Part shown: positions 19,024 through 47,006 of the stretch, in pieces
How positions within the stretch are numbered: the stretch's first letter is position 1
Layout: each line of letters starts with the position of its first letter
Assembly: GCF_001907245.1 (NCBI RefSeq)
Contig: NZ_MQSU01000001.1
Location: forward strand, 208,224-272,223
Reading direction: 5' to 3'
Source: Boudabousia liubingyangii
Lineage (GTDB): Bacteria; Actinomycetota; Actinomycetes; Actinomycetales; Actinomycetaceae
DNA: 64,000 nucleotides
The notes under the pieces: generated by a model
What the model was told of the DNA's origin: nothing
Seen by the model: the letters and a program-made list of their open reading frames with translations, nothing else
The model's database searches: none
Made by a program: the position numbers and the translations under genes

Positions 19024-19096
19024 GTCGAGTCAGCTCTAACTATGCGTGCTTCTAACGATTGGTTCTAGCTTCGTTCTGCTATCTGAGCGCTTGGGC

Positions 19097-19897: not shown

Positions 19898-20012
19898 AGT
19901 AATCCCTCTTTACTAAGATTCGGTCGTATTTTCGATTATTTTCTGACTAGGATTCAGGCGGGCGAAAACGAAGATTCGTCAGTGAGAATCCGACATGTTT
20001 TTAGCTAGGTGT
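19898..20012. promoter_or_regulatory. modA upstream region with repeated GATTC-type motifs
   Basis: The octamer AAGATTCG occurs at 19915-19922 and again at 19971-19978. Related GGATTC sequences lie near 19950 and, inverted, near 19986. CGTATTTTCG and CGAAAACG form an imperfect inverted pair. Such repeats could be operators for molybdate or nitrate control of modA; no known consensus was recognised. Confidence 0.35.
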
Positions 20013-20756: not shown

Positions 20757-20816
20757 GTTCGTAAAATTCCGATGATCTAAGCGGAGGGTCCCTCTCTTAC
20801 CCACCAGAATACTGGA

Positions 20817-21590: not shown

Positions 21591-21592
21591 TG

Positions 21593-22270: not shown

Positions 22271-22272
22271 GC

Positions 22273-23880: not shown

Positions 23881-26800
23881 CAGAACTGTACCTCCTGGCT
23901 ACGACGACGAACGACCGTAACCTCATCTCTCTGGTTACCGGTGGGGCCAATGTAGTTAAACGCGTAGTTGAACTGGCCGTGGCCACCAATCAGGTGAGAG
24001 GGCTTCAAGAAAATACGGGTTAGGGAGTTGTGGGTACCACCGCGTTTACCGGTGGACTCATTCAACGGGGTGTTCATGGTGCGCTCTTGCGCGTGATGCA
24101 TGAACACGGTTCCCTCTGGCATACGGTGAGAAACCACTGCGCGAGCAGAAACCACACCGTTGCGGTTAGCAACTTCAATCCAGTCGTTGTCCTTAACGCC
24201 GATCTTCTCGGCGTCCTTAATGGACATCCAGACGGTCTGACCGCCACGACCCAGGGTCAACATGTGAATGTTGTCGAAGTACTGGGAGTGGATCGCCCAC
24301 TTGTTGTGGACGGTCAGGTAGCGGACGGCTACCTCGGTCTGACCCTGGCCGTTCTGGCCGACGGTGCCCGGGGCGGCTTCACCGTATAGGTGCAGCAGAT
24401 CCAACGGGGGTCGGAAGACCGGGAGGGCTTCACCCATACCCTTGATCCAGTCGTGGTCAAGGAAGAAGTGCTGACGGCCCGACAGGGTGTGCCAGGGCTT
24501 CTCACGTTCGACGTTAATCACGAAGGCGGAGTAGCGGCGGCCACCGTGCTCAGAACCCGACCATTCGGGGCTGGTCACAATGGACATGGGCTTTTCCTGC
24601 ACGTCACGGAAGGTGATGCGAACGTCCTCGGAAGAAGCGGAAAGGTCCTGAGTGTAGGTACCGGTACGCTCATCCAGGTGCTTGAAGCCGGCGGTGGCCA
24701 GGCGACCGTTAGTGGTGCCGGACAGGCGCAGCATCATTTCCGCAGCCTTCTTATCGGTGTCGATCGCCGGGCGCGGGCCTAGGGCGGTCGGAACCGTACC
24801 GTTCATGCGGGCTAGCTGCTTGATTTCCAGTTCGGGCTTGAACAGGATGCCCTTGGTGCCCATGCCGACCTTTTCAGGTAGCGGGCCAATGGCATTGTAC
24901 TTTTCTAGGATCTTCGTGTAGTCGCGTTCGACCTCGACGATCTTCGGCATGTTCAGGCCGGGGACCCAACCGCATTCGGAACGCGGCTGGACGTGCGGGC
25001 CGGGGCCGGTGATCTCATCGGGAGTATCGTGTGCGAGCGGCACGGAGATAACGTCCTTCTGGGTGCCCAGGTGTTCACCGGCGAAGTCAGAGACTAGCGC
25101 GGATAGGTCCTGGAACAGCTGGAAGTCGGTGCGAGCTTCCCACGGCGGGTTGATGGCCGCGTTGAAGGAGTGCACGTAGGGGTGCATATCCGTGGAGGAA
25201 AGGTCGTACTTTTCGTACCAGGTGGCAGCCGGTAGGACCACGTCAGAGAACAGCGTGGTAGAGGTGTTGCGGAAGTCCGCGGTCACCATTAGGTCCAGCT
25301 TGCCCTGCGGGGCCTCGTCACGCCAGGTCATCTTGCGGGGGCGAGCCTCGGGGGCTAGTTCTTCAGCCTGGACGTCGTTATCGGCGCCCAGCATGTGGCG
25401 TAGGAAGAACTCGGTGCCCTTAGCGGAGGAACCTAGCAGGTTGGTACGCCAGTTGAACAGTACCTTGGGCTGGTTCTGGATCGCATCGGGGTCTTCACAG
25501 GCGAACTTGAGTCGGCCCGCGGTGAGTTCTTCGGCCACGTATTCGGCTGCGCCCTTACCGGCGGCAGCGGCGTCCGCACCCAACTGTAGGGAGGAGCGGT
25601 CGAAGGCCGGGTAGGTGGGCATCCAGCCACGCTGGGAAGCTTCCACCAGGGTGTCCGCGGCGGTTAGGTCGCCGAAGACGTTAGCAGCATCGGGGCCACC
25701 TAGGCGGTCGGCGCGCACGCCGTCGTAACGCCATTGGTCGGTGGTGAAGTACCAGAAACCGGTGGCGATCATGTGACGCGGCGGGCGGACCCAGTCAAGG
25801 GCGAAGGAGTACTGTGCCCAACCGGTCATGGGGCGAACCTTTTCCTGGCCCACATAGTGTGCCCAGCCGCCACCGTTAACACCCTGGGTACCACACATGG
25901 TGGTTAGGGCCAGCATGGTGCGGTAGATGGTGTCCGCGTGGTAGTAGTGGTTCACGCCGGCGCCCATGATGATCATGGAGCGGCCTTCGGTTTCTTCCGC
26001 GTTGGTGGCGAAGTCGCGCGCAATGCGGATGATCTGGTTGGCGGAAACACCGGTTAGTTCTTCAGCCCAGGCGGGGGTGCCGGGGGCGGAAGCATCCTCG
26101 TAACCGGTGGGCCATTCGCCCGGTAGGTCCGCGCGGGCCACACCGTAGTTGGCTAGTAGTAGGTCGAAGACGGTGGTGACTAGGTGGTCGCCAACCTTCT
26201 GGACCGGGACGCCACGGTTAACGGTACCGACGCCGACGGGGCCTTCCGGGGTGGTCTGGCCGGGTAGGTCGAAGCGCGGTAGCTCCACGGTGGCGGTCTG
26301 GTAGTTTTCGGTTTCCAGCAAGCTTAGGAGCGGGTCAATACCATCTAGCTTGAGGTTCCACTTGCCAGCGCCGGCGGGGCCGTGACGGTCCGCTAGGGTG
26401 CCGCCCGGGTCCTTGACCGTGCCGTCTGCATCCCAGACGAGGAGGCGCTGCTTGGCGTTCTCAGAATCCTTCAGTTCGTGGCCCTCGGGGAGGTCCGCGG
26501 CGGTCAGGAAGTTACCGGGAACTAGCTTGCCGTCCTTCTCTTCTAGGGTGAGCAGGAAGGGTGAATCGGAGTACTTCTGTAGGTACTTGAGGAAGTACGG
26601 GGTCTGCTTGCCCACGTGGTATTCCTTGAGGATAACGTGACCCATGGCCTGGGCGACGGCACCGTCAGTACCGGGGTTGACGCGGAGCCACTCGTCAGCG
26701 AACTTGGTGTTGTCCGCGTAGTCGGGGGAAACCACGACGACCTTCTGCCCGTGATAGCGGGCTTCGGTCATGAAGTGGGCGTCGGGGGTACGGGTTAGCG

Positions 26801-27584
26801 GAACGTTGGAGCCCCACATGATCAGGTAGTCGGAGTTGAACCAGTCGCCCGATTCGGGGACGTCGGTCTGGTCACCGAAGACCTGCGGGGAGGCCACGGG
26901 AAGGTCCGCGTACCAGTCGTAGAAGGAGAGGTTCACGCCACCGATTAGCTGTAGGTAGCGGGAGCCGGCACCGAAGGACACCATGGACATGGCGGGAAGC
27001 ACGGTGAAGCCGGCAATGCGGTCCGGGCCGTATTCCTTAATGGTGGAGACGTTCGCCGCGGCGACGATCTCCATGGCTTCGTCCCAGGTGGTGCGGACTA
27101 GGCCGCCGCGTCCTCGGGCAGACTTGTAGGCCTTGACCAGCTGCGGGTCGGCCTGGATGGCAGCCCAGGCTTCTACCGGGTCTTTACCTTCGGCCTTGAA
27201 GCGGCGGTAGGCTTCGAGCAGGACGGAGCGGACGTAGGGGTAGCGGATACGGGTCGGTGAGTACTCGTACCAGCTGAAGGCGGCGCCACGGGGGCAGCCG
27301 CGGGGTTCGTAGTCCGGTAGGTCCGGTCCGGTGGACGGGTAGTCGGTCTGCTGGGCTTCCCAGGTGATCACGCCGTCTTTGACGTAGACCTTCCAGGAGC
27401 AGGAGCCGGTGCAGTTAACGCCGTGGGTGGAGCGGACGACCTTGTCGTAGGCGTAGCGCTGACGGTAGAAGGTGTCAGCGGAACGACCGCCGTCGAGGAA
27501 GATCGCGCGCGAGTCCTCGGAGGCTTTACCACCACGCAGCCAGGCTCCCATTTCTAGGAGCTTTGAAGCATTTTTGTTAGTCAT
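23880..27584 (-). CDS. narG: Respiratory nitrate reductase alpha subunit (molybdenum)
   Basis: 1234 residues, full length for NarG. Catalytic subunit reducing nitrate to nitrite with a bis-MGD molybdenum cofactor. Near residue 53 the [4Fe-4S] motif has the NarG-type His ligand (HGVNCTGSCSWKVY), and the molybdenum Asp lies in the typical segment GDQTDVPESGDWFNSDY near 238. There is no twin-arginine signal, so the active site faces the cytoplasm as in E. coli NarG. It begins 29 bases after the narK stop on the same strand, giving the operon narK-G-H-J-I-regulator. Confidence 0.97.
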   Translation of the reverse strand: MTNKNASKLLEMGAWLRGGKASEDSRAIFLDGGRSADTFYRQRYAYDKVVRSTHGVNCTGSCSWKVYVKDGVITWEAQQTDYPSTGPDLPDYEPRGCPRGAAFSWYEYSPTRIRYPYVRSVLLEAYRRFKAEGKDPVEAWAAIQADPQLVKAYKSARGRGGLVRTTWDEAMEIVAAANVSTIKEYGPDRIAGFTVLPAMSMVSFGAGSRYLQLIGGVNLSFYDWYADLPVASPQVFGDQTDVPESGDWFNSDYLIMWGSNVPLTRTPDAHFMTEARYHGQKVVVVSPDYADNTKFADEWLRVNPGTDGAVAQAMGHVILKEYHVGKQTPYFLKYLQKYSDSPFLLTLEEKDGKLVPGNFLTAADLPEGHELKDSENAKQRLLVWDADGTVKDPGGTLADRHGPAGAGKWNLKLDGIDPLLSLLETENYQTATVELPRFDLPGQTTPEGPVGVGTVNRGVPVQKVGDHLVTTVFDLLLANYGVARADLPGEWPTGYEDASAPGTPAWAEELTGVSANQIIRIARDFATNAEETEGRSMIIMGAGVNHYYHADTIYRTMLALTTMCGTQGVNGGGWAHYVGQEKVRPMTGWAQYSFALDWVRPPRHMIATGFWYFTTDQWRYDGVRADRLGGPDAANVFGDLTAADTLVEASQRGWMPTYPAFDRSSLQLGADAAAAGKGAAEYVAEELTAGRLKFACEDPDAIQNQPKVLFNWRTNLLGSSAKGTEFFLRHMLGADNDVQAEELAPEARPRKMTWRDEAPQGKLDLMVTADFRNTSTTLFSDVVLPAATWYEKYDLSSTDMHPYVHSFNAAINPPWEARTDFQLFQDLSALVSDFAGEHLGTQKDVISVPLAHDTPDEITGPGPHVQPRSECGWVPGLNMPKIVEVERDYTKILEKYNAIGPLPEKVGMGTKGILFKPELEIKQLARMNGTVPTALGPRPAIDTDKKAAEMMLRLSGTTNGRLATAGFKHLDERTGTYTQDLSASSEDVRITFRDVQEKPMSIVTSPEWSGSEHGGRRYSAFVINVEREKPWHTLSGRQHFFLDHDWIKGMGEALPVFRPPLDLLHLYGEAAPGTVGQNGQGQTEVAVRYLTVHNKWAIHSQYFDNIHMLTLGRGGQTVWMSIKDAEKIGVKDNDWIEVANRNGVVSARAVVSHRMPEGTVFMHHAQERTMNTPLNESTGKRGGTHNSLTRIFLKPSHLIGGHGQFNYAFNYIGPTGNQRDEVTVVRRRSQEVQF

Positions 27585-27613
27585 TTTTTACCTCAGGTTT
27601 GCTAGTTGCCGGC

Positions 27614-28948
27614 TCAGCCCGGGAAGGGGGCACCCGGACGGGCGTAGTAAATCCAAGTTAGAACGGTGCAGATTAGGAAGAATACGGCGGAGCCGAAGAA
27701 GAAGACCTGTGCGTCTAGGCCAGATAGGGCGATACCTACGAAGAAGGGGCCAAAGGAGGCAATCGCAGAGGTCCAGCCGATGACGCCACCAGCCTGACGG
27801 GGAGGAAGAATCATGGGCATCTGCTTGAAGGTGCCGGCGTTGCCCACACCAGAGAAGAAGAACATGCCTAGCATGAAGGCTAGGAAGGGCCAGAAGTCGT
27901 TGACGCTGGTCGGGTGTAGGTACAGGGCCGCTAGGAAGGTGGTGACGGTCATGCCAGCACCGGAGATTAGGGTCCAGATAGCGCCACCGAAGCGGTCACA
28001 GAGCGGGCCGAAGGCGGCGCGCATGGCGGAACCGATTAGTGGGCCTAGGAAGGCGTAGGTTAGGCCCTTGGGTAGCTGGTCGGCGGGGACCGTGGCTGCG
28101 AAATCAGAGGCAGCACCGAAGGTGTTGTTGATTAGTAGAGCGAACTGGGCAGAGAAGCCAGAGAAAGCACCGAAGGTCATAACGTAGATCAGGGTCATGA
28201 TCCAGGTGTTCTTGTTGCCGAAGATGTCGATCTGCTGCTTGAAGTTAGCCTTGATCGGCACGTCCTTTAGGTATAGGAAGGCTAGAACCGCGGCGATGAT
28301 GGTCCACGGGATGAAGAAGAGGGCGATGTTTCCAACGTAGATTTCGCCGCCGTCTTTGGCCTGGGCGGGCATTACTAGGCCGAGGCTGAGCATGGCTGAA
28401 CCCATTACCCAGGGGCCTAGGAGCTGCACTAGGGAAACGCCGAAGTTACCGATGCCGGCCTGTAGGCCTAGGGCAGTGCCCTGCTTTTCCTTGGGGAAGA
28501 AGTAGCCGGTGGAGGGCATGTAGCCGGCGAAGGAGCCGCCGCCAATACCGGTCATGGCCGATAGGCATAGTAGCCACCAGTAGGGGGTGGCGGGGTTCTG
28601 GACAGCGAAGAACCAGCCGATCATGGGGATGAGGAATAGTAGTGAGGACCAGCCCACTAGCTTCCGGGTGCCGATGACCGGGGGTAGGAACATGTAGATG
28701 AGTCGCATTAGACCGCCAGAGAGGCCCGGGATGGCGGCTAGCCAGTAGAGCTGGGCCTTACTTAGGTCGAAGCCGATCTGATTTAGCTTCGGGGCGATGG
28801 CGGAAACTAGGAACCATACACAGAATGCGATGGTTAGAGAGAATGTTGAGATCCATAGGGTGCGCCAAGCGATCTTGGAATCCCAAGATTCTTCTTTAGA
28901 TGGGTCCCATCCCTGTAGAACCCGTCCGGAAGTGTCCAACTGTGCCAT
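27614..28948 (-). CDS. narK: Nitrate/nitrite MFS transporter
   Basis: 444 residues with 12 helices. It brings nitrate in and can export nitrite in exchange. Nitrate-porter signature stretches are present: GIGGGSFAGYMPSTGYFFPKE near helix 4 and GVGNAGTFKQMPMI near helix 10 (glycine-rich NNP motifs). A single 12-helix unit is seen, not the 24-helix fusion found in some denitrifiers. The ATG is preceded by GAGGAGG-type sequence. As the first gene of the nar operon it supplies substrate to the enzyme encoded next. Confidence 0.95.
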   Translation of the reverse strand: MAQLDTSGRVLQGWDPSKEESWDSKIAWRTLWISTFSLTIAFCVWFLVSAIAPKLNQIGFDLSKAQLYWLAAIPGLSGGLMRLIYMFLPPVIGTRKLVGWSSLLFLIPMIGWFFAVQNPATPYWWLLCLSAMTGIGGGSFAGYMPSTGYFFPKEKQGTALGLQAGIGNFGVSLVQLLGPWVMGSAMLSLGLVMPAQAKDGGEIYVGNIALFFIPWTIIAAVLAFLYLKDVPIKANFKQQIDIFGNKNTWIMTLIYVMTFGAFSGFSAQFALLINNTFGAASDFAATVPADQLPKGLTYAFLGPLIGSAMRAAFGPLCDRFGGAIWTLISGAGMTVTTFLAALYLHPTSVNDFWPFLAFMLGMFFFSGVGNAGTFKQMPMILPPRQAGGVIGWTSAIASFGPFFVGIALSGLDAQVFFFGSAVFFLICTVLTWIYYARPGAPFPG

Positions 28949-29199
28949 GGTGTCCTCCTCTAGGTGTTGGCACCTAGTGTTTTTTGGTGGTTATAAGTTC
29001 TTTTTTCACAAACAATTAACCCGGATTTTTCTGTGAAAATTCTTTTATGCCGATTTTTGTTGAATTCCTGCGGATAAAAAGTGTGACCTAGTCGTTTTCT
29101 GACATCGTATTTTGAAAAATGAGTCTTACTTAAATCAATTTTTGCTAGACTTTGAGGGTGCTCATCCTGCACAAAAAGTCAATGAAGAAGGTGCCTGAA
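28949..29199. promoter_or_regulatory. Divergent control region between narK and mog
   Basis: This AT-rich 250-base stretch must hold the promoters for the nar operon (left) and the Moco genes (right). An inverted pair, TTTTCACA (29003-29010) and TGTGAAAA (29032-29039), is separated by 21 bases. TTGAT with a weak second half lies near 29135 on the minus strand and only half matches the FNR consensus. No clear -35/-10 pair can be assigned with confidence. Confidence 0.45.
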
Positions 29200-29733
29200 A
29201 TGACCAATGAGCCCATTAAGGAAAAAGGATTTCATAAGCTTCCCGAACCCGTTAAGGGTGCCGTAATTACGGTTTCGGATCGCTGCTTTAACGGTAAGCG
29301 CGAAGATAAATCTGGTCCCCTAGCAGTCAGCTTGCTCGCTGATTTTGATGTGGTCTGCGGCGACCCGGTAGTCATCCCGGACGAGGTCGACCAGATTCAG
29401 GCCGCCATTTCTCAAGCCGTTAAGGATGGCGCCCGTGTGGTGCTAACCACAGGCGGTACCGGGGTTACGCCGCGCGATGTGACACCCGAAGCAACCGCTC
29501 CCCTATTAGCCGCCGAGCTTCCCGGCCTAGCCCAGCAGGTAGTCACCTACGGTCTACAGAAGACCCCGTTGGCAGGCCTTTCCCGTGGCCTAGTGGGGGT
29601 TACTTCAAAGGAGTCTGACGGGGCGATGGTGATTAACGCTCCCGGTTCTTCTGGTGGTGTTCGTGACACTGTTACCGTCCTAGGCCCACTAGTTCCGCAC
29701 ATTCTGGAACAGTTGGGTGGGGGCGACCACTGA
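29200..29733 (+). CDS. mog: MogA/MoaB family molybdenum cofactor biosynthesis protein
   Basis: 177 residues. Adenylates molybdopterin before molybdenum insertion by MoeA (the MogA reaction; many bacteria use a MoaB homologue instead). Family motifs are ITVSDRCFNGKREDKSGP, a central TTGGTGVTPRDVTPEAT, and a C-terminal INAPGSSGGVRD. The frame is open from a TTG at 29152, but AAGAAGG at 29185-29191 places translation at the ATG at 29200. First gene of the rightward cofactor cluster. Whether it is MogA or MoaB in the strict sense cannot be decided by eye. Confidence 0.9.
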   Translation: MTNEPIKEKGFHKLPEPVKGAVITVSDRCFNGKREDKSGPLAVSLLADFDVVCGDPVVIPDEVDQIQAAISQAVKDGARVVLTTGGTGVTPRDVTPEATAPLLAAELPGLAQQVVTYGLQKTPLAGLSRGLVGVTSKESDGAMVINAPGSSGGVRDTVTVLGPLVPHILEQLGGGDH

Positions 29734-29833
29734 CCCAACTTAGGTCAGACTATTTTTTACCCTTTTCTCCGTGTAAAATATTTTTCATTGTTTTACCCGA
29801 TCAGGGTTGATTCACTTATCTAGAGGGGGATTT

Positions 29834-30865
29834 GTGCTGCTTAAGGACCGTTACGGACGCGTCGCAAAGGATTTGCGCGTCTCTTTGACGGACCGCTGCA
29901 ACCTGCGCTGCACCTACTGCATGCCCGCCGAGGGCATGGACTGGCTACCCTCCCCCGAAGTTCTAACCGATGATGAACTGCTGCGCCTAATCCGCATTGC
30001 GGTTGAAGATTTAGGCGTCAATAAGATTCGTTTTACCGGCGGCGAGCCCCTACTACGCCGTTCCCTAGAAGACATTATTTCGCGCACCGCTGCCCTTGAG
30101 GGCCCTGATGGTCACCCGGAGATTTCCCTGACCACTAACGCACTGGGCCTTGATAAGCGCGCCCAGGCACTGAAGGATGCGGGCCTGCAGCGTGTGAACG
30201 TTTCCCTAGATACGGTCGATCGAGAATCCTACGCGCGCCTAACCCGCCGGGACCGCCTGCCGCAGGTACTAGAGGGTTTGAAGGCCGCAAAGGCGGCCGG
30301 CCTGTCCCCCATTAAGGTCAATACGGTAGCAATGCTGGATGAGAATCTGGATCAGAGCGCGGACCTGCTGGACTTCTGTTTAGAGCACGGCTATCAGCTG
30401 CGTTTTATTGAACACATGCCGTTGGGTCCGAAGCATACTTGGCGTTTGGATCAGATGGCTAAGGCCAGCGATATCTTGGAGATTCTGGAGGCGAAGTACT
30501 TCCTAACTCCGGTTGGTCAGCGTGGTAGCGCCCCAGCGGAACTGTGGGATGTGCACCCCTTGGGCACCACGGAACAGTCGGCCCAAAATCTGGAGCCTTT
30601 GGGCCAGGTGGGCATTATTGCCTCGGTGACTCGGCCCTTCTGCGGGGACTGTGACCGGACCCGTCTGACCGCTGATGGGGCGATTCGCTCTTGCCTGTTC
30701 TCTCTATCTGAGACTTCTTTGCGTGATGCAATGCGCCAGGGGGCGTCAGACCGGGAATTGGCGGAGCTTTGGTCTTTGACTATGTGGCAAAAGCCGGCAG
30801 GTCATGGGATTAACGATCCGAACTTTATTCAACCTGAGCGCTTAATGTCTGAAATTGGTGGCTAA
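29834..30865 (+). CDS. moaA: GTP 3',8-cyclase
   Basis: 343 residues. Radical SAM enzyme that starts molybdenum cofactor synthesis by rearranging GTP. The N-terminal cluster motif is CNLRCTYCM (CxxxCxxC), with GGEPLLRR for SAM binding. The second [4Fe-4S] cluster near the C-terminus binds GTP through CGDCDRTRLTADGAIRSC. The protein ends in Gly-Gly, as MoaA does; that tail enters the active site. The start is GTG at 29834 behind GAGGGGG; an in-frame TTG at 29807 is less likely. It works with MoaC encoded at 34110. Confidence 0.95.
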   Translation: MLLKDRYGRVAKDLRVSLTDRCNLRCTYCMPAEGMDWLPSPEVLTDDELLRLIRIAVEDLGVNKIRFTGGEPLLRRSLEDIISRTAALEGPDGHPEISLTTNALGLDKRAQALKDAGLQRVNVSLDTVDRESYARLTRRDRLPQVLEGLKAAKAAGLSPIKVNTVAMLDENLDQSADLLDFCLEHGYQLRFIEHMPLGPKHTWRLDQMAKASDILEILEAKYFLTPVGQRGSAPAELWDVHPLGTTEQSAQNLEPLGQVGIIASVTRPFCGDCDRTRLTADGAIRSCLFSLSETSLRDAMRQGASDRELAELWSLTMWQKPAGHGINDPNFIQPERLMSEIGG

Positions 30866-30906
30866 CCTGAGTTACGATTTGTAACTGGTAACACAGTATT
30901 GCTTTT

Positions 30907-30930
30907 GCCGATTCATCGGCTGGATTTTTA
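30907..30930 (+). terminator. Weak terminator after moaA
   Basis: GCCGA (30907-30911) and TCGGC (30916-30920) form a short hairpin with a TTCA loop, followed by TGGATTTTTATT. The stem is only five pairs, so it may be leaky. Confidence 0.4.
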
Positions 30931-30973
30931 TTGCTACTGAGAGTTTTAAAACTATTGAAAGTTGGGGAAGATT

Positions 30974-31234
30974 ATGGCTGATGATTTTTTGGTTCGCTTC
31001 TATGCCGGCGCCGCGGCTGCGGCTGAAACCGATGATTGGCCGGTTGATACGACCACGCTAGAAACCGTGCAGGATCTATTGGATTACCTGTCTGGTCAGC
31101 GTGAGGCGCTAGCCCCGATTTTCGAGGTCGCTACCTTCCTTTGCGCCGGTAAGCCGGTTACTGACCGGACCCTACCTTTGGCGCAGTTGGCTGCACCCCA
31201 GTTGGATGTGCTTCCGCCCTTTGCCGGCGGCTAA
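30974..31234 (+). CDS. moaD: MoaD/ThiS family sulfur carrier (molybdopterin synthase small subunit)
   Basis: 86 residues with a beta-grasp pattern (VRFYAGAAAAAE, TVQDLLDYL, and LDVLPPFAGG). The C-terminal Gly-Gly is the site that becomes a thiocarboxylate after activation by MoeB. It then donates sulfur in the MoaE complex to convert cPMP to molybdopterin. GGGGAAG precedes the ATG at 30974; a TTG at 30962 lies within the ribosome binding site. The neighbouring moaE is on the opposite strand and convergent. Confidence 0.9.
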   Translation: MADDFLVRFYAGAAAAAETDDWPVDTTTLETVQDLLDYLSGQREALAPIFEVATFLCAGKPVTDRTLPLAQLAAPQLDVLPPFAGG

Positions 31235-31255
31235 GCCTTTCTAACCAAGCCCGGT

Positions 31256-31699
31256 TCAGGGGCAGTTGGACCATTCGTGGGTGCCGTCCGGGAAGTACTG
31301 GCACTTCCAGATCTGCAGGCGCTTCTTTACTTCCTCAACCAGGTCACTCAGGGCTTCAAAAGCGGGGCCACGGTGCGGGGCGGAAACGGTAGCGACTAGG
31401 GCCGCGTCTCCAATCTGTAGGCTACCTACCCGGTGTGCCACCCAGAGGGCGGTAATGTCAGGGCGCGCCGCGACCTCGTTAGCGATTTCTTCAATGGTTT
31501 CTTGCGCAACCGGGTGCGAAGAGTAATCCAGGTGGGTTACCTGAGCGCCGTGGTCATGGTTGCGCACCTGCCCGACGAAGGAAACTACGGCCCCCGCGGC
31601 CGGATCCTCAACTGCTACTAAGGCAGCCTCTAGGTCTAAAGGCGTATCTAGGATCTGCGCGTTACGGACCTTAGAGGGGGCAGTTTGAGGGTTTTCCAT
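31256..31699 (-). CDS. moaE: Molybdopterin synthase catalytic subunit
   Basis: 147 residues. Large subunit of molybdopterin synthase; it adds two sulfurs to cPMP using MoaD. Family motifs are GAVVSFVGQVRNHDHG, LDYSSHP (in place of the more common LxYEAYxxMA), HRVGSLQIGDAAL, and the active-site lysines in EEVKKRLQIWKCQYF. It is the only gene of the cofactor cluster on the minus strand and is divergent from moeB. The ATG has only a weak ribosome binding site (AAAAGTACG side). Confidence 0.93.
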   Translation of the reverse strand: MENPQTAPSKVRNAQILDTPLDLEAALVAVEDPAAGAVVSFVGQVRNHDHGAQVTHLDYSSHPVAQETIEEIANEVAARPDITALWVAHRVGSLQIGDAALVATVSAPHRGPAFEALSDLVEEVKKRLQIWKCQYFPDGTHEWSNCP

Positions 31700-31799
31700 T
31701 AAAAGACGTACTTTCTATTTATTCAGTTAAGCATTTGCTTTAAGGTTAGTGTTTAACTCGGTCTATCTATCTTACCCCGGCATTTTTAAGGACCCCCAA

Positions 31800-32693
31800 A
31801 TGCAATCACAGTTTAATCCCTCACCCTTGGGTGACCAGCTACCCGATACGGACCCGCCTACACCCTTGGCGGCACCGGAGGTTTCGGTCTCTTCCCCGAT
31901 TGCTCAAGAGGCTGCCATGCCCACCACCGAGATCCCCCTAGTGGTCCAAGGGGATGCGGAACAGCCCGTGACTGATCGCGATTACCGGACCGCGCTGATT
32001 AGCCAATTGGGGCAAGAGGGTCAGCGTCGCCTTTACCAATCCCGGGTCCTAGTAGTGGGTGCGGGCGGTTTGGGGTCCCCCGTACTGATGTACTTGGCGG
32101 CGGCCTCGGTCGGACACCTAGCGGTATGCGATTTCGATGTGGTGGAGGCTTCGAACCTGCAGCGTCAATTCCTGCACCCGTGGTCGCGTCTGGGCCAGCC
32201 GAAGGCGCAGTCGGCGATTCAGACGCTGCGTGATTTCAACCCGCAGGTGGAATACCGGGAGCTGGGTCGTTTCCCGCGCGTGGATGATGATTTCTTTGTG
32301 CCCGAAGAGTGGCTGGAGCTGCTGCGCAGCTACGATCTGGTGATTGACGCTTCGGATAACTTTGAGACTAAGTATTCGATTTCTAGGGCTTGCCAGGTGG
32401 CGCAGGTGCCGCACTTGTGGGGCACGATTGTGGGCTGGGATTTCCAGGTGAGCCTGTTTACCCCGCGTCAGGGTGATGGTTTGCGGGCCCTGTACCCGCA
32501 TGTTCCGCAACCGGGTACGACTCCTTCGGGGGCGACCGATGGGGTGCTGGGCGCGGCTTGTGGTCAGGCTGGTTCGGTGATGGCCGCAGAGGCAATCAAG
32601 TACCTGTGTGGCCTATCCCCGACGCTGGAGGGTCAGGTCCTGTTTGGTAGTGCACTATTTAATACTTGGCGGCTGGTACCTTTCGGGGGTTAA
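31800..32693 (+). CDS. moeB: ThiF/MoeB family adenylyltransferase
   Basis: 297 residues. Activates the MoaD C-terminus by adenylation. The Rossmann motif VVGAGGLGSPVLMYLAAA, the Arg-containing NLQRQFLH, and DASDNFETKY are intact. The first 55 residues are a Pro/Gln-rich extension not found in E. coli MoeB. The two CxxC pairs that bind zinc in E. coli MoeB are absent, and the Cys in the usual SCAExGVLG is replaced (SGATDGVLG). No rhodanese domain follows. AAGGA at 31788-31792 supports the ATG at 31800 instead of a GTG at 31749. Confidence 0.88.
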   Translation: MQSQFNPSPLGDQLPDTDPPTPLAAPEVSVSSPIAQEAAMPTTEIPLVVQGDAEQPVTDRDYRTALISQLGQEGQRRLYQSRVLVVGAGGLGSPVLMYLAAASVGHLAVCDFDVVEASNLQRQFLHPWSRLGQPKAQSAIQTLRDFNPQVEYRELGRFPRVDDDFFVPEEWLELLRSYDLVIDASDNFETKYSISRACQVAQVPHLWGTIVGWDFQVSLFTPRQGDGLRALYPHVPQPGTTPSGATDGVLGAACGQAGSVMAAEAIKYLCGLSPTLEGQVLFGSALFNTWRLVPFGG

Positions 32694-32738
32694 TGCCCTT
32701 CGCTAGAATGGGGTTAACTACGTCTTTTGGAGGCAATG

Positions 32739-33998
32739 ATGGCACCGCTTAAGGTTGAGGATTACCTTTCTGAACTTCTTTCTGTGACCCCGGTTTTACC
32801 CACCCAAGTTTTGCCTCTGCCTGAGGCTTTGGGACGAGTTTGCGCCCGGGATTATCAGGCCCGCTTCCCGGTTCCGCCCTTTACGAACTCCGCCATGGAT
32901 GGTTTTGCGGTTCGTTTTGAGGACTTGACTTCCTTCCCGTTGACCTTGCAGGTGGCGGGCGAGGTCGCGGCGGGCGCCAGCGGGGACCTTGAGTGTGGTC
33001 CGGGGCAGGCGATCCGCATTATGACAGGCGCTCCCCTGCCAAAGGGCGCCGATACGGTAGTCCCGGTGGAGTTGACGGACCAGCCAGCCGGCGCGGCCCC
33101 ACTACCGCAGCAGGTGGTGATTAATGAGCCGGTGAAGCCGCAGGCTAATGTGCGCCGCCAAGGTGAGAATGTCCAGGTTGGGGACCCGGTTTTCCCGGCG
33201 GGCCAGGTCCTGTCGGCCACGGCCCTGAGCGCGTTGGCGTCGGTTGGTTTTGGGGACCTGGAAGTCTTTGCGCGCCCTCGGGTCGCGGTGATCAGTACGG
33301 GCGATGAGCTGGTTGCGGCCGGTGAGCCACTGGGTCCGGGGCAGATCCCGGATTCGAACTCGGTACTGTTGCGGGGCCTGTTGCAGGCGGCCGGCTATGA
33401 GGTGGAGGTCTTGCGGACTTCTTCTGATACGCCGGATGATTTTGCGCAGTTGTTGGCGTCGGTGGCGGATGATGGTTTTGATGTGGCCATTACGACCGGT
33501 GGGGTGTCCGCGGGTGCCTATGATGTGGTGAAGGCGGTGACGGCCCAGCAGGGTTTCAGTTTCCATAAGGTCGCCATGCAGCCGGGTAAGCCGCAGGGTT
33601 TTGGGCAGCTTTCGGGTCGTGACCGCAAGTGCCTGATGTTGGCTTTGCCGGGTAATCCGGTTTCGGTGTTTGTTTCTTTCCATACTTTTGTGGTCCCGAT
33701 TTTGGGCGCGATGCAGGGGATCCCGGTGGAGCGTTTGACTTCTTTGGGGGCCCGAGGGCGCTCGGCCACGTTCCCGGAGTCTTTTAACTCTCCGGCTGGT
33801 CGCCGTCAGTTTGTGCCGGTGCGTTTTGATAATGCGGATACCAGCGTGGTGGAGCGGACTCATACTTTGGGTTCGGGTTCGCACTTGGTGGCTTCTTTGC
33901 CTTTGGCTGAGGGTTTGGCGATTATCCCGGAGGATTGGGATCAGGTTGAGGCGGGCGTTTCGGTGCCGGTTTTGGACCTGCGACTGCCCTGGTTCTAG
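32739..33998 (+). CDS. moeA: Molybdopterin molybdenumtransferase
   Basis: 419 residues. Inserts molybdate into adenylated molybdopterin. Motifs include FTNSAMDGFAVR near residue 50, the MoCF-biosynthesis core STGDELVAAGEPLGPGQIPDSNS near 190, TTGGVSAGAYDVVK near 253, and LPGNPVSVFVSF near 307. The start at the second of two ATG codons leaves five bases after GGAGG, the better spacing. C-terminal MoeA domain IV is present. It follows moeB closely. Confidence 0.95.
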   Translation: MAPLKVEDYLSELLSVTPVLPTQVLPLPEALGRVCARDYQARFPVPPFTNSAMDGFAVRFEDLTSFPLTLQVAGEVAAGASGDLECGPGQAIRIMTGAPLPKGADTVVPVELTDQPAGAAPLPQQVVINEPVKPQANVRRQGENVQVGDPVFPAGQVLSATALSALASVGFGDLEVFARPRVAVISTGDELVAAGEPLGPGQIPDSNSVLLRGLLQAAGYEVEVLRTSSDTPDDFAQLLASVADDGFDVAITTGGVSAGAYDVVKAVTAQQGFSFHKVAMQPGKPQGFGQLSGRDRKCLMLALPGNPVSVFVSFHTFVVPILGAMQGIPVERLTSLGARGRSATFPESFNSPAGRRQFVPVRFDNADTSVVERTHTLGSGSHLVASLPLAEGLAIIPEDWDQVEAGVSVPVLDLRLPWF

Positions 33999-34109
33999 GT
34001 CTTATGGGGGCCGGATGGGTCCCAGTTGGCCTTTTGCTAGACGGGGCTTAAGCCCGGTTTGGACCCCGATTTTGTTTCTGTTAATGGTTTTTCTAGTTTT
34101 GGAGTAGTT

Positions 34110-34604
34110 ATGAAGTTTACGCATTTGGATCAGTCCGGTGAGGCCTACATGGTTGATGTGACTGAGAAGCAGCCGACGGTCCGTCAGGCTACGGCCGAGG
34201 GCTTGGTGCGCGTCTCAAAGCCGATTATGGATGCCCTGCGTGAGGGCACGGTCCCGAAGGGTGACGTGTTGGCGGTGGCCCGGATTGCGGGTATTTCTGC
34301 GGCTAAGCGCGTGCCGGAGCTATTGCCTTTGGCGCACACCATTGGTGTGCATGGGGCGAAGGTGGATTTGGAACTGCTGGAAGAGCACGTGAAGATCACG
34401 GCTACGGTGCGCACTGCGGATCGTACCGGCGTGGAGATGGAAGCTTTGACGGCTGTGTCCGTGGCGGCTTTGGCGGTCGTGGATATGGTTAAGGGTGTCG
34501 ATAAGCTGGTCAGCATTGAACAGTGCCAGATTATTGTGAAGTCTGGGGGTCGTTCGGGCCAGTGGACCCGTGAGGCGGCCCTGAAGGATGCCGGCCAGGA
34601 ATGA
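34110..34604 (+). CDS. moaC: Cyclic pyranopterin monophosphate synthase
   Basis: 164 residues. Converts the MoaA product into cPMP. Conserved segments are MVDVTEKQPTVRQATAEG, LPLAHTIGVHG with the catalytic His, ETGVEMEAL-like TGVEMEALTAVSVAALAV, and DMVKGVDK with the active-site Asp and Lys. GGAG lies 5 bases before the ATG at 34110. The stop overlaps mobA by 4 bases (ATGA), showing translational coupling. Confidence 0.95.
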   Translation: MKFTHLDQSGEAYMVDVTEKQPTVRQATAEGLVRVSKPIMDALREGTVPKGDVLAVARIAGISAAKRVPELLPLAHTIGVHGAKVDLELLEEHVKITATVRTADRTGVEMEALTAVSVAALAVVDMVKGVDKLVSIEQCQIIVKSGGRSGQWTREAALKDAGQE

Positions 34605-35260
34605 GCACTGAGCTTTTGGATGGTTCCGCGGCCGGGCTGGCAGTGATTTTGCTGGCGGGCGGCACTGCGAAGCGCCTAGGTGGGGTTTCTAAGCCGGGCT
34701 TGCAGGTTGGTTCGCGCCGCATGGTGGATTACAGCCTAGAGCTCCTGCAGCAGCGTTTCCCCGGGGCGCGTCTGGTGGTGGTGGCCCCGGATTCTTTGGA
34801 TCTACCCGCGGGGGTTCCTAGTACTTTGGAGGATCCTCCGTTTGGGGGCCCGGCAGCGGGCGTGTCTGCGGGTTTTGAGTTCTTCAAGGCTGGCGAACAG
34901 CTGCCCCGTTGGGTGGCGGTTTTGCCGGTTGATGCCCCCTATGGGGTACTGGCGTTAGAGGACCTGGTTGCCGCGACTAGGCAGGCAGCAGATGACGCTA
35001 GTTCAGAGGCGGCCTTTTCCGAGGGTGCGTGGCCGGCTTGGCAGGCCGTGGTTGGTGAGCAGCACTATCCGACCATCATGTTGATGCCTTGGCAGTCCAT
35101 GGCTGACCTGTTTAAGGCTGGTCCGGTGCGGGATATTTCTTTGCGTCGCTTGTGGTCTGATCTTGAGGTGACTGCGGTGCCGGTGTCGGCGGCTGATGCT
35201 TTTGATATTGATACGCCCGAAGATTTGGAGCATTTCTTAGCGCATATTAAGCGTGCTTGA
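34601..35260 (+). CDS. mobA: Molybdenum cofactor guanylyltransferase-type nucleotidyltransferase
   Basis: 219 residues. The N-terminal nucleotide motif LLAGGTAKRLGGVSKPGLQV matches the MobA pattern LAGGxxxRxGGxxK. A later DDPPFGGPAAG-like segment (LEDPPFGGPAAGVSAG) and LPVDAP fit the guanylyltransferase fold. It attaches GMP to molybdopterin to make the MGD form used by NarG. The ATG lies within the moaC stop. The relatives MocA and IspD are less likely given this context. It is the last gene of the cofactor cluster. Confidence 0.9.
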   Translation: MSTELLDGSAAGLAVILLAGGTAKRLGGVSKPGLQVGSRRMVDYSLELLQQRFPGARLVVVAPDSLDLPAGVPSTLEDPPFGGPAAGVSAGFEFFKAGEQLPRWVAVLPVDAPYGVLALEDLVAATRQAADDASSEAAFSEGAWPAWQAVVGEQHYPTIMLMPWQSMADLFKAGPVRDISLRRLWSDLEVTAVPVSAADAFDIDTPEDLEHFLAHIKRA

Positions 35261-42380: not shown

Positions 42381-43529
42381 ATGACGATTATTGCTGCAGC
42401 AGACGGTTCCGCCCTTTCCAATCCCGGCCCGGCCGGCTGGGCCTGGGTGATTGACGATAACTGTTGGGCCGCCGGTGGTTGGCCCCAGGGCACCAACAAT
42501 ATTGGTGAGCTCACCGCGGTTTTGGAGCTATTGCGTGCCACCAAGTCCGCCGGCAAAGCCGATGAGCCCCTGCATATCCTGTGCGATTCGCAGTACGTCA
42601 TTAACTCCCTGACCAAGTGGCGTTTTGGGTGGAAGAAAAAGGGCTGGAAGAAAGCTGATGGCAAGCCCGTCCTGAACGTAGAAATCATGAAGGCCCTGGA
42701 TGAGGAACTTCAGGGTCGCCAGGTCACTTTTGAGTGGGTTAAGGGCCATGCCGGTCATGACCTTAACGAGGCCGCTGACGACCGGGCGCGTGCCGCCGCC
42801 ACCGCCTACCAGCAGGGTACTACCCCGAATAAGGGTCCCGGCTTCCCCGGGGATCAGCGCTCCTCTCAGGGCGCTGCCATGGAAGATCAGGGCGCTGCCG
42901 CTGTAAAAGAACAGGCTACTGAGGCAGAAGCGGCACCCACCGCGGTACCCGAAAATGCGGCGGTAGTCGCGGGAACTGGGACCGTAGTAGCGGGAACTGG
43001 GGACGCGCCCTCGGCAGGAAAAGCCGAAGAACCCAAGGAATGCGAAATTTGCCAGCGCATCAAAGCCAACCAGCAGGGCACCAATCCGTACCTGGTCGCG
43101 GAAACGAAGAGCGGCTGGGTTGTCATCGCCGACCACCAGTACGTCCGCGGGACCACCATGTTCCTGTCGAAGACGCACGCTCGGGAACTGTGGGAACTGC
43201 CCGCCGCCCAACAGCAGGCTTACTTGGCTGAAATGGTGCAGGTCGCGAAGGCTGTGGGACTGGCTTTTGGGGCCGAAAAGATGAACTACGAACTGCTTGG
43301 CAATGGGCTCACGCACCTGCACTGGCACCTGTTCCCCAGGCGGGCCGGGGATACTCCGCGGCCCGGACCGGTCTGGTGGGTGGACCCGGAAGAGTTCTAC
43401 AGTGACCAGGTCAAAGCCAGCGGGGCCAGCCTGCAGGAGCTGCGCGAGAAGCTAGCGCAGGGGCTGCTGGACGTGGGTCTGCGGCATAATCCGGCCGCCG
43501 ATTTGGCGCAGCCAGAAACGCTGCTCTAG
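42381..43529 (+). CDS. RNase HI - HIT domain fusion protein
   Basis: 382 residues. Residues 1-140 are RNase HI: catalytic D8 (AADGS), E43 (IGELTAV), D69 (LCDSQ) and the downstream GHAGHDLNEAADDRA with His and Asp. An Ala/Glu/Gly-rich linker (about 145-215), with a repeated VVAGTG unit, joins it to a HIT domain (about 220-340) that carries CEICQRI, a YLAEM helix and the nucleotide-binding HLHWHL. RNase H removes RNA from RNA-DNA hybrids; HIT proteins hydrolyse or transfer nucleotides. The TAG stop overlaps the stop of the convergent gene. TAGGCT lies 7 bases before the ATG. Confidence 0.88.
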   Translation: MTIIAAADGSALSNPGPAGWAWVIDDNCWAAGGWPQGTNNIGELTAVLELLRATKSAGKADEPLHILCDSQYVINSLTKWRFGWKKKGWKKADGKPVLNVEIMKALDEELQGRQVTFEWVKGHAGHDLNEAADDRARAAATAYQQGTTPNKGPGFPGDQRSSQGAAMEDQGAAAVKEQATEAEAAPTAVPENAAVVAGTGTVVAGTGDAPSAGKAEEPKECEICQRIKANQQGTNPYLVAETKSGWVVIADHQYVRGTTMFLSKTHARELWELPAAQQQAYLAEMVQVAKAVGLAFGAEKMNYELLGNGLTHLHWHLFPRRAGDTPRPGPVWWVDPEEFYSDQVKASGASLQELREKLAQGLLDVGLRHNPAADLAQPETLL

Positions 43530-45553
43530 TTGGTTTTGATATGGAAGACCATGCCCATTTGGCGGTGACCAGTCACTGAGCACCAGCCCTCCACCGGGCC
43601 CTCAATCACGCCCGCATCCAGTTCCTGGATTTGATTGGGCTTAAGCAGATCCGTGTGCTTGCCATTTTCAAGGTGCAGATCATGTTCAATGCGGGCCGTA
43701 TTATGCAGTTTCAACACCAGGTGCGTACCCTTCGGGACGGTCACTTGGGCGGGCTCAAAAGACATGCCCTTGACGGTAATGTCCACGACCTTCGCATTCG
43801 GGTCAGCCACTCCCCCATTTTCGGCACCTTCCGCAGTGCCAGACTGGCCTGCCGCCTGACCTGCCGACGGTCCCGAGGTCGCAGCCGGCTTCGGCAGGTA
43901 GCCATCTGCCGGACCGGAACGGAAAGCCGGATCGACCAGCACCCAGGCCACAATCAACAATCCCAACAGGACCATTCCCGCCCCGAAATAGGTGCGCTTC
44001 ACGTTCGTCGCAGCAGCCGCGGCCGCATTCGGATCCACCTTTACCGAGGGTGCAAAACGGCCACTTACGTTAGGCGCATCCAACTTAGAGGGGACCTGGG
44101 CGGCCTCATTTGCCGGCTCGGACAACAGCCCAATCAGCACCAGGGCTAGCGACCAGAAGACCACCAGTACCAAAGCCCCCAAAACCAGCCAGGTAAGGAG
44201 CTGTCCGGGAGCCAAGCCCGCGCCCTCGTCAGAAGCAGACGAAAGGGTGGCAGGCAAGAACCAGAACAGGACCAGCAACAGGTTCAACAGGATTACGCGC
44301 AGCAGGCCATGCTGCCCAATCCAAGCGTTCGAATAGCGGGCGGCAGCCGGGCCACCACCACGCATCACGGGCAGCAGGTAAGCCAGGGAACCGGCAATCA
44401 CCTGAGCGATGCCGAACAGGAACCAAATAATCCCACCGGAAAGGGCCGAACGGACATGAGTGCCGCTGGCATGACCCGCCAAAAGGACGCCGGCCAGGCG
44501 GACCGCCCAAATAGACAGGGCCACAGTCAGCCAGATTAGGCCCGCAAACATCAGGTAGGCGGGGAACTCGTCAAGGGGTTTTTGGACCGCCGCCCACACT
44601 AGCGGCAGCAGGATTCCCAGGATGAAAAAGATCAGGTAGGCAACCAGGGCCCACAGGCTCAGGCGTAGGGCCCAAGCGGTCCAGTAGCTGGCCACCGCCC
44701 CCGCGGCTGACAGCACCATAGTCAGAACCAGTAGTGGCAGCATGCGGGTCGCCAAGGGTCGGGCCTGCGGGACCATCTTGGTGCGCATGACCGTGGGACC
44801 AAAAGTCACCAGGGTCGTCGCTAGGGTGATGCCCACAAAGCCCAGTAGGTTCAAGAAAACATGGGACAGGACCAGGGTATTACCCAGCGCTCCCAGGTCG
44901 GTGCCCTTGGCTAGGCGCCAGGCGGGCCAGGCCGCCAAAGACACTGCCACGATCAGGGACGCGAAGGCCCACACGTAATAGCGGGCCAGGAAAGTCAGCG
45001 GGCCCGCGAAGACCACCTTGGAGGCGCGCAGTAGCACCAGCGCATGCCAAGTCCACACGCCCAACAGGATCACCACACCCGTCAGGGCCACGTGCGGATT
45101 CCCCAACAGCATGCCGATTACGGTGATGATCGCACCGGTTTGGTGCCCGGCCAGGCGCCAGGCTTGCCCCCGGTTCGGGATCTTCCCGCCGCGAGCCAGC
45201 GCCTGGGTGAAGTGTGCCGACCAGGTCAAAATATTCGTCCCGATCACCCCAAGGGTGAATAGGTGCACGGCCGTCCACCAGCCGGTCGGCAACTGCGCGA
45301 GGGCCTGAGCGTGCGAGAGTTGCGTCCACACCTGGTACATGAAAATCAGCAGTAGCCAGGTGAAAGTGGCCCAGCGGTTAATGAGCTGCGGGGCGCTGTT
45401 GGCTCGAGAGTTTTGGGGACGGGAGTTTTGCGGGCTACGTACCTTTGACGAGGACGCCGGGCCCGTTGACGAGGACGCCAAGTCACTCCCCTTGTTTAGG
45501 TGGCTGCCCGGGTGGTTGCGGTTTTCAGAGGACGGAAGTTGTAACTCAGGCAT
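43526..45553 (-). CDS. Polytopic membrane protein with a C-terminal single cupredoxin domain
   Basis: 675 residues. About twelve helices fill residues 35-540. Residues about 590-675 form one cupredoxin domain with all likely copper ligands: His in IEHDLHL, Cys in GWCSVTGH, His in the same segment and Met in RQMGMVF. Actinobacterial NirK-type nitrite reductases often carry a similar membrane part (HLFTLGVIGTN), but with two cupredoxin domains; the catalytic type 2 copper site needs the second. Here only one is present, so an electron carrier or copper protein is more likely than a nitrite reductase. AAGGAAC precedes the ATG, and it overlaps its partner by 8 bases. Confidence 0.8.
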   Translation of the reverse strand: MPELQLPSSENRNHPGSHLNKGSDLASSSTGPASSSKVRSPQNSRPQNSRANSAPQLINRWATFTWLLLIFMYQVWTQLSHAQALAQLPTGWWTAVHLFTLGVIGTNILTWSAHFTQALARGGKIPNRGQAWRLAGHQTGAIITVIGMLLGNPHVALTGVVILLGVWTWHALVLLRASKVVFAGPLTFLARYYVWAFASLIVAVSLAAWPAWRLAKGTDLGALGNTLVLSHVFLNLLGFVGITLATTLVTFGPTVMRTKMVPQARPLATRMLPLLVLTMVLSAAGAVASYWTAWALRLSLWALVAYLIFFILGILLPLVWAAVQKPLDEFPAYLMFAGLIWLTVALSIWAVRLAGVLLAGHASGTHVRSALSGGIIWFLFGIAQVIAGSLAYLLPVMRGGGPAAARYSNAWIGQHGLLRVILLNLLLVLFWFLPATLSSASDEGAGLAPGQLLTWLVLGALVLVVFWSLALVLIGLLSEPANEAAQVPSKLDAPNVSGRFAPSVKVDPNAAAAAATNVKRTYFGAGMVLLGLLIVAWVLVDPAFRSGPADGYLPKPAATSGPSAGQAAGQSGTAEGAENGGVADPNAKVVDITVKGMSFEPAQVTVPKGTHLVLKLHNTARIEHDLHLENGKHTDLLKPNQIQELDAGVIEGPVEGWCSVTGHRQMGMVFHIKTN

Positions 45554-46790
45554 TTTGTTCCTTTTGAATATTCGCTACCAACCATGGCTGCACTACCGCT
45601 GTCACCAAGACCGTTACCACCAGGCCGAGAACCGTGACCACGTTCAGGCTGGCCGCCCACTGCCACAGGTTCGCAAACTGCCACACCAAGCCCACGCCCA
45701 GACGCAACCACAGGCTGGCATGCAGGGCCCCCAGCAGCACCCACCAGAAGGGTCGCCACGGCAGCGGGCGTCCAGTCAGGGCCGGGAAAATCACCGGGGC
45801 GTGCGCCAAAATCATCGAAAAAGCAAAGCCCAGGGTGACTGCGTGAATGGCCGCCTCATAGGCCGGGCCAGAGGTCAACTCCCCCGCGACCGCCCAGATC
45901 ACCGCGGCCACCGCCAGCCAGAAATACCCGGCCAACATGGCCACCGCCATGAACCTAGTCTGCCCCTCACGACGCCAAGTCTTACGGGCCACGTCCGAAG
46001 ACCAAACCACCACGGTCAAGGCCAAAAGCAGGTAGCCCCAGAGGACCGAACCCAGGTTCGGGGCCACAAAAGCCAACAGAGAGGCAACGAAAGCTAGGGT
46101 ACTAAGAGCCAGCACGGCGTCCTCGGCCCGGGAAGAAAAGTGCAGGCGTGCCAACTCTAGGCGCTCAGAAATAATCGTAAAAATCGGGAAGCCCAAAAGC
46201 GGCAACAAGAGTTGGCTGATGCCCAGGCCCGCGAACCAGCCGATTGCGCAGATCACCAAGTCGAAGGCGCCCAGAGCGGCAATCAGGAAGGCACGCTGTG
46301 GAACTCGGCGGTAAAAACGCACGTACGCGGCCGCCAAAATCAGGCCCGCCAGTAGGATGCCCACACCAATCAGATGCTGCACCACCAGCAGGGCCACATG
46401 TCCCCCGCCGGGCGCGTGAGCAACCCCGGTGGCGTGCAGGAGCGGCTGGATCATCCAGCCCAGCGCCGCCAAAGCCGTACCGGTTGGGGCCAGATATGCC
46501 CACCAGACGCCCGCGGCGACGGCCCGCTCCAGGGTGATGGCCGCGCCCAGGAAACCAATGATCATCAGCCAGCCATGGTTCGCACCCAAACCCACGCTGT
46601 TGACCGGGGCAGCCGCACCAATGCGCACCAGGGCCGCATCTAGGCCCGCTAGGACACTCAGGGCCAGCAGGAAGAAGAGCGGGGCCCGCCAGGCCTTAAA
46701 GGAAGGTGCCTTATTGGGGGTCTTCCGGGTAGCCGGGATGGAAGGGTCTGAGGCTCCGCCACGGGGAGCTTCGGTCACTGTTTTAGCCAC
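45546..46790 (-). CDS. NnrS-like multi-helix membrane protein
   Basis: 414 residues with about eleven helices. HGWLMIIGFLGAAITLERAVA resembles the NnrS family, which is tied to nitric oxide resistance and haem-copper chemistry. His residues in the first helices could bind haem or copper. The start is GTG at 46790 behind AAGGAGGT (46800-46807 on the plus strand numbering); the frame is open to 46910 but that part looks non-coding. The gene overlaps the next by 8 bases, so the pair is translationally coupled and the products are probably partners. Confidence 0.78.
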   Translation of the reverse strand: MAKTVTEAPRGGASDPSIPATRKTPNKAPSFKAWRAPLFFLLALSVLAGLDAALVRIGAAAPVNSVGLGANHGWLMIIGFLGAAITLERAVAAGVWWAYLAPTGTALAALGWMIQPLLHATGVAHAPGGGHVALLVVQHLIGVGILLAGLILAAAYVRFYRRVPQRAFLIAALGAFDLVICAIGWFAGLGISQLLLPLLGFPIFTIISERLELARLHFSSRAEDAVLALSTLAFVASLLAFVAPNLGSVLWGYLLLALTVVVWSSDVARKTWRREGQTRFMAVAMLAGYFWLAVAAVIWAVAGELTSGPAYEAAIHAVTLGFAFSMILAHAPVIFPALTGRPLPWRPFWWVLLGALHASLWLRLGVGLVWQFANLWQWAASLNVVTVLGLVVTVLVTAVVQPWLVANIQKEQNA

Positions 46791-47006
46791 CGGTCTGCGA
46801 CCTCCTTGCGGGTACGTGTTGCGGGATAAAAAGCTAGGTGAAATGCCGGACAAAAAGTCCAGCGAGAAGCCGGGTGGAACTGGGCCGTCCCGGACGAAAC
46901 TTATGTTCACCTAACAAAGGCTCAATTCTACGTTCCGTTCCGGCCCGCAGGGAAGAGTCTGTGAGGTATCTCCGCGCGTTGCTAGACAGAAAACGAACGC
47001 CACCGG

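What the first reader, a model, noticed from the sequence alone, without database searches (positions are those of the whole stretch)
43526..46790. Membrane protein with only one cupredoxin domain coupled to an NnrS-like protein
The membrane part resembles that of actinobacterial NirK fusions, yet only a single cupredoxin with Cys, two His and Met follows. The catalytic copper site of NirK needs two domains. With the overlapping NnrS-like gene this could be a copper-dependent NO or nitrite stress module serving the nar system, which has no nitrite reductase in this window.
Basis: partly seen in the sequence, partly recalled or inferred. Interest (0 to 1): 0.6.

Follow-up and report, generated by a model that had tools for sequence, protein, structure and literature searches.

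The report
NirK fusion missing its NirK enzyme
This bacterium carries the membrane and copper-relay half of a known actinobacterial nitrite-reductase fusion, intact but without the nitrite-reducing enzyme, and it is the only one of the relatives examined in which that half stands without the enzyme.

Summary
The gene at 43526-45553 (-) encodes a 12-13-helix membrane domain (TM) plus one type-1 cupredoxin (CU; H624, C658, H663, M668). It overlaps by 8 bp a second membrane-protein gene (NNR). CU is not half a NirK: it is the extra N-terminal cupredoxin (CX4HX4M) of the known ~900-aa actinobacterial TM-cupredoxin-NirK fusion. In 45 of 46 non-redundant relatives the two-domain NirK follows CU in the same frame; the 46th runs off its contig. 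Here the protein stops 7 residues after the Met ligand. Of 213 genomes of the family, 119 encode the protein; 118 of these also hold a NirK-module match, and this 99.9%-complete genome is the exception. It also lacks Cu-oxidase_3, COX1-family and NrfA genes. Conserved positions are kept (51 of 54), so decay is not visible. Predicted structures give both membrane proteins the heme-copper-oxidase subunit I fold (best Z 21 and 25) with few of its histidines conserved. Best reading: a secondary loss of NirK from a quinol-to-cupredoxin relay whose remaining acceptor is unknown; neutral relic is the main rival. New variant of a known kind. An NO/nitrite stress role is possible but untested; the NnrS label fails the Pfam test.

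The parts
43526..45553 (-). TM-CU gene: membrane domain plus one cupredoxin, 675 aa, NirK-less relative of the actinobacterial NirK fusion
44120..45397 (-). 12-helix membrane core (residues 53-478) with heme-copper-oxidase subunit I fold in the AlphaFold2 model; H97 (helix 2) and H231 (helix 6) conserved in 70 of 70 homologues
43934..44032 (-). 13th helix (residues 508-540) leading to the cupredoxin
43529..43792 (-). Cupredoxin domain (residues 588-675), type-1 copper ligands H624, C658, H663, M668; W657 instead of a type-2 copper His
   Evidence: ligand assignment from alignment and family knowledge
43526..43529 (.). CTAG shared by the stop codons of TM-CU (-) and of the convergent RNase H-HIT gene (+): place where the NirK module would follow in relatives
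45546..46910 (-). NNR gene, partner membrane protein (likely start GTG at 46790, about 414 aa), 12 helices, heme-copper-oxidase subunit I fold, conserved H112, H356, H370 (numbering of the 454-aa ORF)

Best explanation
The locus is an actinobacterial NirK operon (NNR, then TM-CU-NirK) that lost its two-domain NirK module by deletion at the 3' end and kept an intact membrane module and cupredoxin. Shown by computation: homology, absence of NirK in the genome, conservation of the remaining residues, and the predicted fold of both membrane parts. Inferred: NNR and TM are heme-b-binding relatives of oxidase subunit I that take electrons from menaquinol and hand them to the outward-facing type-1 copper. 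Inferred and weak: without NirK the copper now delivers electrons to another acceptor outside the membrane, or buffers NO, nitrite or copper stress next to the nitrate reductase.
For: Relatives: NirK follows CU in the same ORF in 45 of 46 non-redundant loci; L028 ends at its contig end. Family: 119 of 213 genomes match the window protein, 127 of 213 match the NirK module, and the only genome with the first and not the second is G000 (G147, 72% complete, has only a 45-residue NirK fragment). Phylum: of 396 genomes, 8 have a match spanning TM and CU, 7 of these with NirK, G000 without. G000 has no NirK module candidate and no Cu-oxidase_3. Nesting: all other 42 rows of the TM-CU tree come from NirK-bearing loci. 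No decay: 51 of 54 columns conserved in at least 90% of relatives are kept, mid-range among 43 rows; GC3 0.738 is like that of narG 0.774 and the partner 0.732. Operon: the partner lies next to the NirK gene in all 11 other genomes that have it (positions). Fold: Z 21.2 (rmsd 4.3, 383 residues) to cbb3 CcoN for TM and Z 25.4 (rmsd 3.7, 354 residues) for NNR. CU best matches in the PDB by profile are 2dv6 residues 55-130 (E 1e-6) and 6tfd (E 2.7e-5), both copper nitrite reductases.
Against: One genome only; no second strain was available to confirm the junction or to measure selection. TM-CU and NNR of G000 do not group with those of its congener G003: for NNR a G000+G003 clade is rejected at p-AU 0.022, and the branches are long, so simple vertical loss within the genus is not shown. 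The fold similarity to oxidase subunit I is not backed by sequence (hhalign E 0.06 and 0.14; Pfam COX1 in 1 of 16 rows). No acceptor was identified.
Confidence: 0.75

Rival explanations
1. Relic: NirK was lost recently and the rest is a functionless remnant that has not yet decayed.
For: Two congeners, G001 and G002, have neither TM-CU nor NNR nor NirK, so the module is dispensable in the genus; no acceptor known; window lineage is a long branch.
Against: Both overlapping genes are open over 3.3 kb, conserved columns and copper ligands are kept (51 of 54), and the protein ends cleanly at the domain end.
Confidence: 0.3
2. Stand-alone stress module: the pair protects against NO or nitrite made by the nar system, by a copper- and heme-based reaction that needs no NirK.
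For: narGHJI and molybdenum cofactor genes lie in the same window; the genome has no NirK, NrfA or COX1-family NO reductase; TM homologues also occur without adjacent NirK in other genomes of the phylum.
Against: No conserved CuB-type histidine set; no NnrS membership by Pfam; nothing found here links the operon to NO regulation.
Confidence: 0.25
3. Split system: NirK is encoded elsewhere and works in trans.
For: TM and CU-NirK are separate ORFs in many relatives.
Against: No NirK-module candidate and no Cu-oxidase_3 match anywhere in the 99.93%-complete genome.
Confidence: 0.02
4. Assembly or strain artefact: a misjoin removed NirK from the contig.
For: Single genome, 10 contigs; the join was not checked against reads.
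Against: The gene lies inside a 578-kb contig, both convergent genes end with stop codons at the join, and NirK is not found on any other contig.
Confidence: 0.06

Closest known systems
Actinobacterial NirK with N-terminal membrane domain and cupredoxin (Propionibacterium acnes type, ~900 aa; PMC4770552, passages seen)
   Same: Membrane domain, cupredoxin with CX4HX4M, order of domains
   Different: Catalytic two-domain NirK absent here
N-terminal cupredoxin of Hyphomicrobium denitrificans CuNiR (2dv6; the organism name is recalled)
   Same: Closest solved sequence match of the cupredoxin (E 1e-6)
   Different: There it is tethered to a NirK core and has no membrane domain
Heme-copper oxidase / NO reductase subunit I (CcoN, NorB)
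   Same: Predicted 12-helix fold of both membrane proteins
   Different: No conserved full set of heme and CuB histidines; no sequence-level membership
NnrS (PF05940)
   Same: Multi-helix membrane protein of nitrogen-oxide operons; similar histidine-bearing helices (recalled)
   Different: No Pfam match in the window protein

Membership tests
Copper nitrite reductase NirK | Two-domain catalytic core with type-2 copper site | tested here: not met
   Absent from gene, window and genome
Actinobacterial TM-cupredoxin-NirK fusion | N-terminal ~400-aa membrane domain | tested here: met
   Homologous over TM, 26-37% identity
Actinobacterial TM-cupredoxin-NirK fusion | Accessory cupredoxin with CX4HX4M | tested here: met
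   C658-SVTG-H663-RQMG-M668; motif in 46 of 46 relatives
Actinobacterial TM-cupredoxin-NirK fusion | C-terminal NirK module | tested here: not met
   Stop 7 residues after Met; 45 of 46 relatives have it
NnrS | Pfam PF05940 above cut-off | tested here: not met
   None at E<=1 for the window protein; 1 of 23 members at 0.045; none in own genome
Heme-copper oxidase subunit I | 12-helix subunit I fold | tested here: met
   VIA-align Z 21.2 and 25.4, the 50 rows shown are subunit I chains; predicted models only
Heme-copper oxidase subunit I | Conserved histidines for two hemes and CuB (six; recalled) | tested here: not met
   TM: only H97 and H231 invariant in 70 of 70; NNR: H112, H356, H370 in 36 of 37
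Heme-copper oxidase subunit I | Pfam COX1 match | tested here: not met
   Own genome 0; 1 of 16 TM-CU rows at 5.8e-5, not the window row
Quinol:cupredoxin relay (proposed) | Bound heme and type-1 copper, electron transfer from quinol | not testable with these tools
   Needs purified protein

The most novel reading that the evidence does not exclude
The unit left here is a self-standing membrane relay, built from two degenerate heme-copper-oxidase-like subunits and a tethered blue-copper domain, that works without NirK and passes quinol electrons to some other acceptor. That would mean that the ~400-aa domain of unknown function in actinobacterial NirK is an oxidase-derived quinol:cupredoxin reductase that evolution can uncouple from the enzyme.
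Probability: 0.3. Interest if true: 0.72.

Novelty: new variant of a known kind. Interest (0 to 1): 0.5.

Why it matters
Whether cupredoxins tethered to copper nitrite reductases are real electron donors is still debated (PMC13324648, conclusion section read; PMC4770552, passages), and the membrane domain of the actinobacterial form is called of unknown function in PMC4770552. A strain that kept exactly these two parts and lost the enzyme is a natural domain deletion for testing what they do. The predicted oxidase-subunit fold of both membrane proteins gives a concrete, testable role.

Tried and rejected
NirK elsewhere in the genome: not found. NirK remnants in the window: 12 query modules, only chance hits. 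NrfA or a COX1-family oxidase/NO reductase as replacement: none in G000, while 4 and 20 of 39 genomes have them. Plasmid collection: no match. Sequence proof of kinship to oxidase subunit I: hhalign gave E 0.06 (TM) and 0.14 (NNR) against 7 COX1 rows, each time pairing a conserved His with a heme-ligand helix of COX1 (helix 10 for H231, helix 2 for H112; helix roles recalled); this is a hint, not a proof, and for TM the pairing is shifted by one four-helix repeat. TM and NNR as paralogues: hhalign probability 16% and 45%. Foldseek alone was weak (NNR best E 7.6e-3; TM-CU list filled by cupredoxin proteins). Empty site in congeners: RNase H and HIT homologues lie apart in G003, so no syntenic comparison was possible. 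cd1-type NirS, NirBD, CuA proteins and other cupredoxins in the genome were not searched (all 12 genome searches used).

Papers: PMC4770552 passages, PMC8756737 passages, PMC13324648 passages and its conclusion; otherwise search listings only. None of those listings showed a NirK-less TM-cupredoxin protein or an oxidase-like fold for this domain; the library holds only open-licence PMC papers.

Full report
Observation. TM-CU (43526-45553, -) has 675 aa: about 50 low-confidence residues, twelve membrane helices, a thirteenth helix, a low-confidence linker and one cupredoxin (model pLDDT 72, pTM 0.66). NNR (45546-46910, -) has twelve helices (pLDDT 84, pTM 0.82). They overlap in ATGCCTGA. The cupredoxin carries H624, C658, H663 and M668; where NirK has a type-2 copper His next to the Cys (recalled), it has W657.

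What it is. Relatives encode the same membrane domain and cupredoxin, followed by a two-domain NirK. Of 46 non-redundant loci, 45 have the NirK module in the frame of the cupredoxin, with a linker of 12-81 residues, and the other ends at its contig end. The window protein stops 7 residues after the Met ligand, on a CTAG shared with the stop of the convergent RNase H-HIT gene. The published description of the P. acnes NirK, a ~400-aa membrane domain of unknown function plus a cupredoxin CX4HX4M before NirK (PMC4770552, passages), fits the relatives, and it fits the window protein except for NirK.

How unusual it is. In 213 genomes of the family, 119 match the window protein and 127 the NirK module; G000 is the only genome with the first and not the second. 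One of the other 118, G147, has only a fragment of NirK, in a 72%-complete genome. In 396 genomes drawn from the phylum, 64 match the TM-CU profile at E<=1e-10, 8 over both parts; 7 of these 8 have NirK, G000 does not. Fourteen further genomes with partial TM-CU matches also lack a NirK match at that limit. Six stretches around TM homologues of other genomes were read; five have no NirK match nearby, and in the sixth, L141, the TM homologue sits next to a cupredoxin-multicopper oxidase. So the membrane domain is not tied to NirK everywhere, but the joined TM-CU form without NirK was seen only here.

Loss rather than ancestral state. The other 42 rows of the TM-CU tree come from NirK-bearing loci, and the window row lies among them. 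The genome has no NirK module, no Cu-oxidase_3, no COX1-family and no NrfA match. In the genus, G003 has the complete set, G001 and G002 have none of it. The trees do not join G000 with G003; for NNR that clade is rejected at p-AU 0.022. Horizontal transfer or differential loss is therefore possible, and branches are long.

Not visibly decayed. The window protein keeps 51 of 54 columns that are conserved in at least 90% of the others; leave-one-out values for 43 rows run from 85% to 100%. Codon composition is like that of the neighbours. This does not prove function: a recent loss would look the same.

How it may work. Both membrane proteins match heme-copper oxidase subunit I in structure: TM-CU Z 21.2, rmsd 4.3 over 383 residues; NNR Z 25.4, rmsd 3.7 over 354 residues; the 50 entries shown in each list are subunit I chains of oxidases or NO reductases. 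The tool's note puts the typical best Z of mostly helical models without a clear match at 14. Sequence support is weak. Conserved histidines are few: H97 in helix 2 and H231 in helix 6 of TM, 70 of 70; H112 in helix 2, H356 and H370 in helix 10 of NNR, 36 of 37. H112 and H356 sit on the two helices that hold the low-spin heme in oxidases (recalled), so one heme b in NNR is plausible; a CuB site is not. In intact operons I infer menaquinol to heme b to type-1 copper to NirK. Here the last step is missing. The most likely present states are a relay with another acceptor or a stress role (together about half) or a relic (about 0.3).

Comparison. By membership the locus is not NirK, not NnrS by Pfam, and not a heme-copper oxidase by sequence or ligands. 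It is the N-terminal half of the actinobacterial NirK fusion with its operon partner. Whether tethered cupredoxins donate electrons to NirK is debated (PMC13324648, conclusion read), which is why a natural NirK-less form is useful.

Limits. One genome; no reads; the structure evidence comes from predicted models with shallow alignments (16 and 23 rows); cd1-type NirS, NirBD and other possible acceptors were not searched.

Noticed in passing
42381-43529 (+): RNase HI and a HIT-domain protein are fused in one ORF (Pfam); in the congener G003 the two homologues are separate genes far apart.
   Followed up: partly
17452-35260: narGHJI with an MFS transporter, ABC transport genes with a solute-binding protein, an ArsR-type regulator and molybdenum-cofactor genes form one nitrate-respiration cluster.
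   Followed up: no
L136:6473-7762, L140:5928-7169: Stand-alone homologues of the NirK membrane domain without adjacent NirK in other genomes of the phylum; 20 of 27 phylum-level rows have His where the window has F233, giving HxH with H231.
   Followed up: partly
L141:5848-8713: A membrane-domain homologue next to a cupredoxin-multicopper oxidase with SoxE similarity, a possible second enzyme type coupled to the same membrane domain.
   Followed up: partly
L074, L075: Gene order reversed: the partner gene follows the NirK fusion instead of preceding it.
   Followed up: no
L071: A relative with partner and cupredoxin-NirK but no TM match, with the partner's C-terminal part and NirK in one open frame.
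   Followed up: no
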